NCBI GenBank assembly: GCA_003017855.1 | Contig: PYER01000004.1 | Span: 1 to 64,000, forward strand | Length of the DNA stretch: 64,000 nt | DNA from: a filamentous cyanobacterium CCT1 | GTDB taxonomy: Bacteria > Cyanobacteriota > Cyanobacteriia > Phormidesmidales > Phormidesmidaceae | Direction: 5' to 3' | Translations under genes and position numbers: made by a program | The notes under the pieces: model-generated | Databases searched by the model: none | What the model was told of the DNA's origin: nothing | The model's input: the letters and a program-made list of their open reading frames with translations, nothing else | Part shown: positions 9,331-9,716 of the stretch, piece after piece | Numbering within the stretch: the first letter of the stretch is position 1 | Layout: the number at the start of each line of letters is the position of its first letter

Positions 9331-9365
9331 TTGACAGTCTCAGGTCAAACAGTAACAATGAATAC
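9331..9365 (+). promoter_or_regulatory. promoter (TTGACA...TAACAA) overlapped by an NtcA-type box GTAACAATGAATAC
   Basis: TTGACA 9331-9336; TAACAA 9353-9358 (16-bp spacer); GTA-N8-TAC at 9352-9365. Confidence 0.65.
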
Positions 9366-9373
9366 AGAAACAA

Positions 9374-9428
9374 ATCGTTCATCTCTCTTTGAGAGACGGA
9401 AGTAGAGCTAAAGCTCGAAGGAACGCGC
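9374..9428 (+). ncRNA. glutamine-I (glnA RNA) riboswitch
   Basis: CGTTC(9376-9380)/GAACG(9421-9425) P1; CTCTC-TTT-GAGAG P2; conserved GACGGAAGTAG; GAGC-TAAA-GCTC P3; GAAGGAACGCGCC. Confidence 0.88.
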
Positions 9429-9469
9429 CTCTGTTTATACACCTTCACTCATTTAAGGAGAGGCGAAAG

Positions 9470-9640
9470 ATGTCCTTGAAATATCGCGGCGTTGATTACG
9501 ATCCTGCTACCTCCCAGGTAGCTGTCTCTGAAGAAGTTATTGGCCGCTATCGCGGTGCGGTTGCTACCCGCCACGTTGCCAAGCAGGCTAAGGCCGATCA
9601 CCCCCAGGGTCTCAAGTATCGTGGGGCTGTGGTTCGCTAG
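9470..9640 (+). CDS. DUF4278 domain small protein
   Basis: MSLKYRGVDYDPATSQV...LKYRGAVVR; SD AAGGAG at 9455-9460. Confidence 0.88.
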   Translation: MSLKYRGVDYDPATSQVAVSEEVIGRYRGAVATRHVAKQAKADHPQGLKYRGAVVR

Positions 9641-9668
9641 GTTAAGGTTGCCCGGTTAGGCTAAGCGC

Positions 9669-9716
9669 TGGCCCCAGCTATGGGTTTTTGCCCTTGCTGG
9701 GGCCAATGTTTTTTAA
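9669..9716 (+). terminator. intrinsic terminator
   Basis: TGGCCCCAGC...GCTGGGGCCA followed by a T-rich tract. Confidence 0.75.

What the first reader, a model, noticed from the sequence alone, without database searches (positions are those of the whole stretch)
9331..9640. Glutamine riboswitch plus NtcA box controlling a DUF4278 small protein
The sequence shows all conserved parts of the glutamine-I/glnA RNA: CGTTC/GAACG P1, two short hairpins, GACGGAAGTAG and GAAGGAACGCGCC. It lies just downstream of TTGACA-N16-TAACAA. An exact GTA-N8-TAC box (GTAACAATGAATAC, 9352-9365) overlaps that -10, the layout expected for NtcA repression. Established knowledge: glutamine riboswitches control gifB in Synechocystis, NtcA represses gif genes, and the small PII-interacting regulator PirA is, to my recollection, DUF4278-related. 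Inference: this gene is a nitrogen-excess-induced small regulator under two nitrogen inputs, with transcription released when NtcA is inactive and expression raised by glutamine.
Basis: partly seen in the sequence, partly recalled or inferred. Interest (0 to 1): 0.82.

Follow-up and report, generated by a model that had tools for sequence, protein, structure and literature searches.

The report
Glutamine-sensing RNA controls tiny nitrogen-brake-like protein
A filamentous cyanobacterium related to Nodosilinea carries a 56-residue protein gene whose promoter has a binding site for the nitrogen regulator NtcA and whose message begins with a glutamine-sensing RNA switch; the arrangement is of a known kind, but this protein belongs to its own conserved branch, and its genome shows the same switch attached to a second known nitrogen brake, PirA.

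Summary
Window 9374-9429 is a glutamine-I riboswitch aptamer (RF01739, 60.8 bits against a 35-bit cut-off). Promoter, NtcA box, aptamer, SD-masking hairpin and 56-aa DUF4278 gene are conserved in 27 same-genus orthologs (NtcA box exact in 26). The likely mechanism is a two-input nitrogen-excess gate: NtcA blocks the promoter when 2-oxoglutarate is high, and glutamine opens a translational ON switch, in which CGCCUCU (9426-9432), starting at the aptamer's "linchpin" C, otherwise pairs with AGAGGCG around the SD (9459-9465).

This is a known kind: such aptamers are mostly linked to DUF4278 genes (gifB/IF17; Prochlorococcus PMM1846). Still, the only PirA domain found in this genome is a DUF4278-PirA fusion under its own glutamine riboswitch and NtcA box. 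In relatives, 38 of 45 such fusion loci carry the aptamer, against 0 of 10 short PirA genes. That link was not found in the paper library and is the most useful new result.

The parts
9331..9359 (+). Sigma-70-type promoter: TTGACA 9331-9336, -10 TAACAA/AACAAT 9353-9359 (16-17 nt spacer)
   Evidence: TTGACA kept in the same-genus orthologs while the spacer varies
9352..9365 (+). NtcA box GTA-N8-TAC over the -10 element; centre 9358.5, which is -7.5 if transcription starts at 9366 (start site inferred)
   Evidence: gifB of Synechocystis has its site at -7.5
9374..9429 (+). Glutamine-I riboswitch aptamer: P1 9376-9380/9421-9425, P2 9382-9387/9391-9396, P3 9405-9408/9413-9416
   Evidence: RF01739 60.8 bits; compensatory changes in P2 and P3
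9426..9432 (+). Anti-SD strand CGCCUCU; its first base C9426 corresponds by position to the ligand-dependent linchpin C60 of the crystal structure (inferred)
   Evidence: linchpin from PMC11477058
9455..9465 (+). Shine-Dalgarno region AAGGAGAGGCG; AGAGGCG 9459-9465 pairs with 9426-9432
   Evidence: pairing nearly invariant in orthologs, CGCC/GGCG pairing kept in most other riboswitch leaders
9470..9640 (+). Stand-alone DUF4278 protein, 56 aa, with stop codon; three YRG motifs and core EEVIGRYRGAVATRH
   Evidence: PF14105 50.8 bits; alignment; tree
9663..9715 (+). Strong hairpin followed by T-run: probable terminator, so the gene is probably transcribed alone
   Evidence: z-score -5.0; terminator-like hit 9690-9703

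Best explanation
The locus is a single-gene nitrogen-excess gate. When nitrogen is scarce, 2-oxoglutarate-bound NtcA sits on the -10 region and blocks transcription, and any message made stays untranslated because 9426-9432 pairs with the SD region 9459-9465. After an ammonium upshift NtcA leaves; glutamine then binds the aptamer, locks P1 and takes C9426 into the linchpin pair, which weakens the masking hairpin and opens the SD. The product is a 56-aa DUF4278 protein of a separate conserved branch, most likely a small protein-binding regulator that acts during nitrogen excess. Shown: the aptamer, box, hairpin complementarity, gene and their conservation. Inferred by homology to gifB and Prochlorococcus PMM1846: glutamine binding, ON direction and NtcA repression. 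Not known: the protein's target.
For: Covariance-model hit. Leader and promoter conserved in 27 same-genus orthologs and aptamer present in 32 of 34 named loci of Nodosilinea, Leptolyngbya and relatives; of the two exceptions, one has only 19 nt of upstream sequence and one lacks the aptamer. Minimum-energy and consensus folds both mask the SD. An NtcA gene is present (385 bits). The same promoter-box-aptamer order occurs at the IF17-like and PirA-fusion genes of the same genome. gifB precedent: NtcA at -7.5, glutamine ON switch. Codon-position bias shows a protein under selection.
Against: The single-strand fold is not clearly more stable than shuffled sequence (z -1.0). Forcing P1 alone does not open the SD in the energy model; the SD hairpin is lost only when all of 9426-9429 is blocked, and even then the SD re-pairs elsewhere. 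So the switch rests on tertiary effects that this model cannot show. The masking helix hardly varies in orthologs, so it has no covariation support there. No transcript start, binding or expression data.
Confidence: 0.8

Rival explanations
1. The stand-alone DUF4278 protein works in trans on the DUF4278 parts of IF17-like and PirA-fusion proteins, for example by pairing with them or competing for the protease that removes them, and so tunes the other brakes instead of having its own enzyme target.
For: Co-regulated DUF4278-IF7 and DUF4278-PirA genes in the same genome; a review reports that the N-terminal part of IF17 is dispensable for function but promotes stability.
Against: No direct evidence of DUF4278-DUF4278 contact; the structure model is of low confidence (pLDDT 68, pTM 0.32). 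The window protein's clade is well separated from the fused DUF4278s.
Confidence: 0.3
2. The protein is a GS inactivating factor or a PII-binding PirA homologue.
For: Same regulation as gifB; small protein rich in arginine.
Against: No IF7 or PirA domain, while NF052599 and NF050139 detect these domains in the other riboswitch-controlled proteins of this genome. Separate clade.
Confidence: 0.08
3. The gene is a decaying fragment of an IF17-like gene that lost its C-terminal effector.
For: DUF4278 alone; more than ten DUF4278 matches in the genome.
Against: 40 stand-alone sequences form one supported clade (98/98), with strong third-position bias and an intact leader; a terminator-like hairpin follows directly.
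Confidence: 0.03
4. The aptamer controls transcription termination or message decay instead of translation.
For: Not excluded by sequence alone.
Against: No terminator-like hairpin between aptamer and start codon; the SD lies inside the masking helix.
Confidence: 0.1

Closest known systems
gifB (IF17) leader of Synechocystis sp. PCC 6803, type 1 glutamine riboswitch (Klahn et al. 2018, as reviewed in PMC6316151)
   Same: Glutamine-I aptamer in the 5'UTR, NtcA site over the core promoter (-7.5), DUF4278 at the N terminus of the product
   Different: The window protein ends after DUF4278 and has no IF7 part that inactivates GS
PMM1846 of Prochlorococcus MED4 (small DUF4278 protein with glutamine riboswitch and NtcA motif, PMC6316151)
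   Same: Small DUF4278 protein under glutamine riboswitch and NtcA motif; function unknown
   Different: Type 2 (RF01704) aptamer in that lineage, type 1 (RF01739) here
[quoted passage not shown]
   Same: NtcA-repressed small nitrogen-excess protein
   Different: Different protein family; relates to this locus only through the DUF4278-PirA fusion elsewhere in the genome

Membership tests
Glutamine-I riboswitch (RF01739) | Covariance-model score above gathering cut-off, three-stem aptamer with GACGGAAGUA and GAAGGAACG | tested here: met
   60.8 bits against 35, positions 1-53 of 53
Glutamine-I riboswitch (RF01739) | Selective binding of L-glutamine | not testable with these tools
   Needs in-line probing or ITC
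DUF4278 (PF14105) | Profile match above gathering score | tested here: met
   50.8 bits against 25.3, profile 1-55 of 57
GS inactivating factor (IF7/IF17) | IF7-type C-terminal domain (NF052599) | tested here: not met
   No NCBIfam match in the window protein; found in C483 and C323 proteins
PirA | PirA domain (NF050139) | tested here: not met
   No match in the window protein; only PirA domain found in the genome is at C326
NtcA-repressed promoter | GTA-N8-TAC overlapping -10 or start site, conserved | tested here: met
NtcA-repressed promoter | NtcA binding and derepression in ammonium | not testable with these tools
   Needs EMSA, RT-qPCR or an ntcA mutant

The most novel reading that the evidence does not exclude
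NtcA-box promoter, glutamine-I riboswitch and DUF4278 coding part travel together as a 5' cassette that has been joined to different nitrogen brakes: to IF7 (GS), to PirA (PII/arginine), or left alone as in the window. In this lineage the arginine brake PirA is thereby put under direct glutamine control, and the stand-alone DUF4278 protein is a further nitrogen brake or a trans-acting partner of the fused ones.
Probability: 0.4. Interest if true: 0.65.

Novelty: new member of a known kind. Interest (0 to 1): 0.42.

Why it matters
The window locus is an instance of an established design, which lowers its own surprise. It becomes useful through its context. Bolay et al. 2021 (PMC8092223) left open whether N-terminally extended PirA proteins exist at all or are annotation errors. 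Here DUF4278-PirA fusions follow a conserved glutamine riboswitch and NtcA box, which argues that they are real and that arginine synthesis in these cyanobacteria is braked by glutamine directly. The stand-alone DUF4278 clade gives a clean test of what DUF4278 does without an effector domain.

Tried and rejected
Structure prediction of the 56-aa protein from 34 sequences gave a low-confidence all-beta model (pLDDT 68, pTM 0.32), so no fold search was made. No solved structure matches by sequence. No relative in phage records or viral contigs. Klahn et al. 2018 is not held in the library, so its full list of riboswitch-linked genes could not be checked. A simple energy model of ligand-free and P1-locked states did not show SD release from P1 alone. 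The 89-aa riboswitch-led protein was considered as NirP1 but dropped: NirP1 homologs have one conserved Cys and three conserved Trp, and this protein has too few Trp.

Full report
Observation. Rfam finds a full-length glutamine-I aptamer at 9374-9429 (60.8 bits, E 5.7e-11). The open reading frame 9470-9640 encodes 56 residues and is a complete DUF4278 domain. A hairpin with a T-run follows at about 9663-9715, so the gene is probably transcribed alone.

Conservation. The genome is close to Nodosilinea: the nearest named relatives are Filamentous cyanobacterium CCP3 (98% protein identity), Nodosilinea nodulosa PCC 7104 (95%) and other Nodosilinea and Leptolyngbya. In 27 same-genus genomes, counting its own, the ortholog has the aptamer directly upstream. 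In the alignment TTGACA, the box GTA-N8-TAC and the leader stay while the promoter spacer and the upstream DNA diverge. The box is exact in 26 of 27 (L040 reads GTA-N8-CAC). Substitutions in the gene fall mostly on third codon positions (0.41 against 0.10 and 0.07).

Switch anatomy. With or without comparative data, the predicted fold pairs CGCCUCU 9426-9432 with AGAGGCG 9459-9465 and hides the SD; in the consensus fold CCUU also pairs with AAGG of the SD. C9426 follows the 3' strand of P1 directly. In the solved glutamine-I aptamer the base that I place here, C60, makes a Watson-Crick 'linchpin' pair with G23 only when glutamine is bound (PMC11477058; the equivalence of C60 and C9426 is by position, not by a structural alignment). 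The proposal is therefore that glutamine takes C9426 away from the masking helix. This is inference: the energy model keeps the SD masked with P1 formed, and gives up that hairpin only when 9426-9429 are all unavailable. Glutamine riboswitches are reported to activate expression, which fits an ON switch.

Two inputs as a rule. Among 144 distinct glutamine-I riboswitch loci with a readable downstream gene in 60 related genomes, 125 have an exact NtcA box within 75 nt upstream of the aptamer, against a background of about 0.04 boxes per 75 nt. The double control is thus general and not special to this gene. The gifB promoter of Synechocystis has its NtcA site at -7.5; the window box would be at -7.5 if transcription starts at 9366.

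What the riboswitches control. Of 146 loci, 68 precede DUF4278-IF7 (IF17-like) genes, 48 DUF4278 without a recognised effector, 8 DUF4278-PirA, 1 an IF7 gene without DUF4278, and 21 other or unreadable genes. The window's own genome has six aptamers: the window gene; a paralog on contig C96; two IF17-like genes (C323, C483); a DUF4278-PirA fusion (C326; NF050139 60.1 bits, cut-off 50); and a 38-aa hydrophobic protein (C15). The C323 protein's IF7 match is below that model's curated cut-off (63.1 against 70) although its E-value is 2.2e-17. The association of these aptamers with DUF4278 was already reported by Klahn et al. 2018, as told in PMC6316151, so the window locus is a new member of a known kind.

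The window protein. It has neither the IF7 nor the PirA domain. In a tree of riboswitch-led DUF4278 domains it lies in a clade of 40 stand-alone proteins (support 98/98), apart from the IF17-like and PirA-fused ones (only 60 columns, many forks open). All members of this clade come from the window's own family of cyanobacteria. It is therefore a distinct subfamily and not a broken IF17. Its target is unknown.

PirA link. NF050139 finds exactly one PirA domain in this genome, inside the fusion; in the genus nearly every genome has one, always in a long frame. Of 45 DUF4278-PirA loci examined (a few are duplicates or cut by contig ends), 38 have the aptamer and 42 have a box; of 10 short PirA genes none has the aptamer. 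Bolay et al. 2021 knew of N-terminally extended PirA but could not exclude annotation error and did not connect it with DUF4278 or a riboswitch in the text found here; no paper in the library holds both 'PirA' and 'DUF4278'. The conserved riboswitch directly upstream supports the long form as real.

Limits. No expression, binding or transcript-start data exist here. The original Klahn paper could not be read. The genome is a draft (546 contigs, 96.8% complete, 4.0% contamination), so absence of a separate pirA is likely but not proven for this strain; the same absence in nearly complete relatives supports it.

Noticed in passing
L006 / L285 (G000:C326:29164-29700): Glutamine riboswitch plus NtcA box upstream of a 138-aa DUF4278-PirA fusion; only PirA domain found in the genome. 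38 of 45 such fusion loci in relatives carry the aptamer, 0 of 10 short PirA genes do.
   Followed up: yes
L005, L133, L149, L170, L173, L176, L137, L164, L090, L151, L162: Glutamine riboswitch directly upstream of a 38-53 aa hydrophobic protein (MDTALVAGLEIIAAVTVM...WVLP type) without DUF4278 and without a family-library match for the members tested; possibly an unrecognised small membrane protein of the glutamine regulon.
   Followed up: partly
L082, L095, L111, L131, L051: Glutamine riboswitch upstream of an 89-aa protein of no known family, usually without the NtcA box (1 of 5 has it).
   Followed up: partly
L177 (G028:C2:1066000-1068200): Three tandem DUF4278 genes, each with its own glutamine riboswitch.
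   Followed up: partly
L181 (G000:C506:11337-11432): gifA (IF7) homologue that looks cut short (41 aa from the likely start); the other IF7 matches in the genome are both in DUF4278 fusions.
   Followed up: no
L002 (G000:C96:1-2646): Second stand-alone DUF4278 with riboswitch on a 2.6-kb contig that encodes the same protein as a locus of CCP5 (G031:C611, L043); may be a paralog or cross-contamination.
   Followed up: partly
L248: DUF4278 copy in a MAG labelled PVC group without any aptamer upstream, although its near-identical relative L246 has one.
   Followed up: no
window 5694-59266: GTA-N8-TAC occurs 11 times in the window against 4.4 expected from shuffles (0 of 100 shuffles as many).
   Followed up: no
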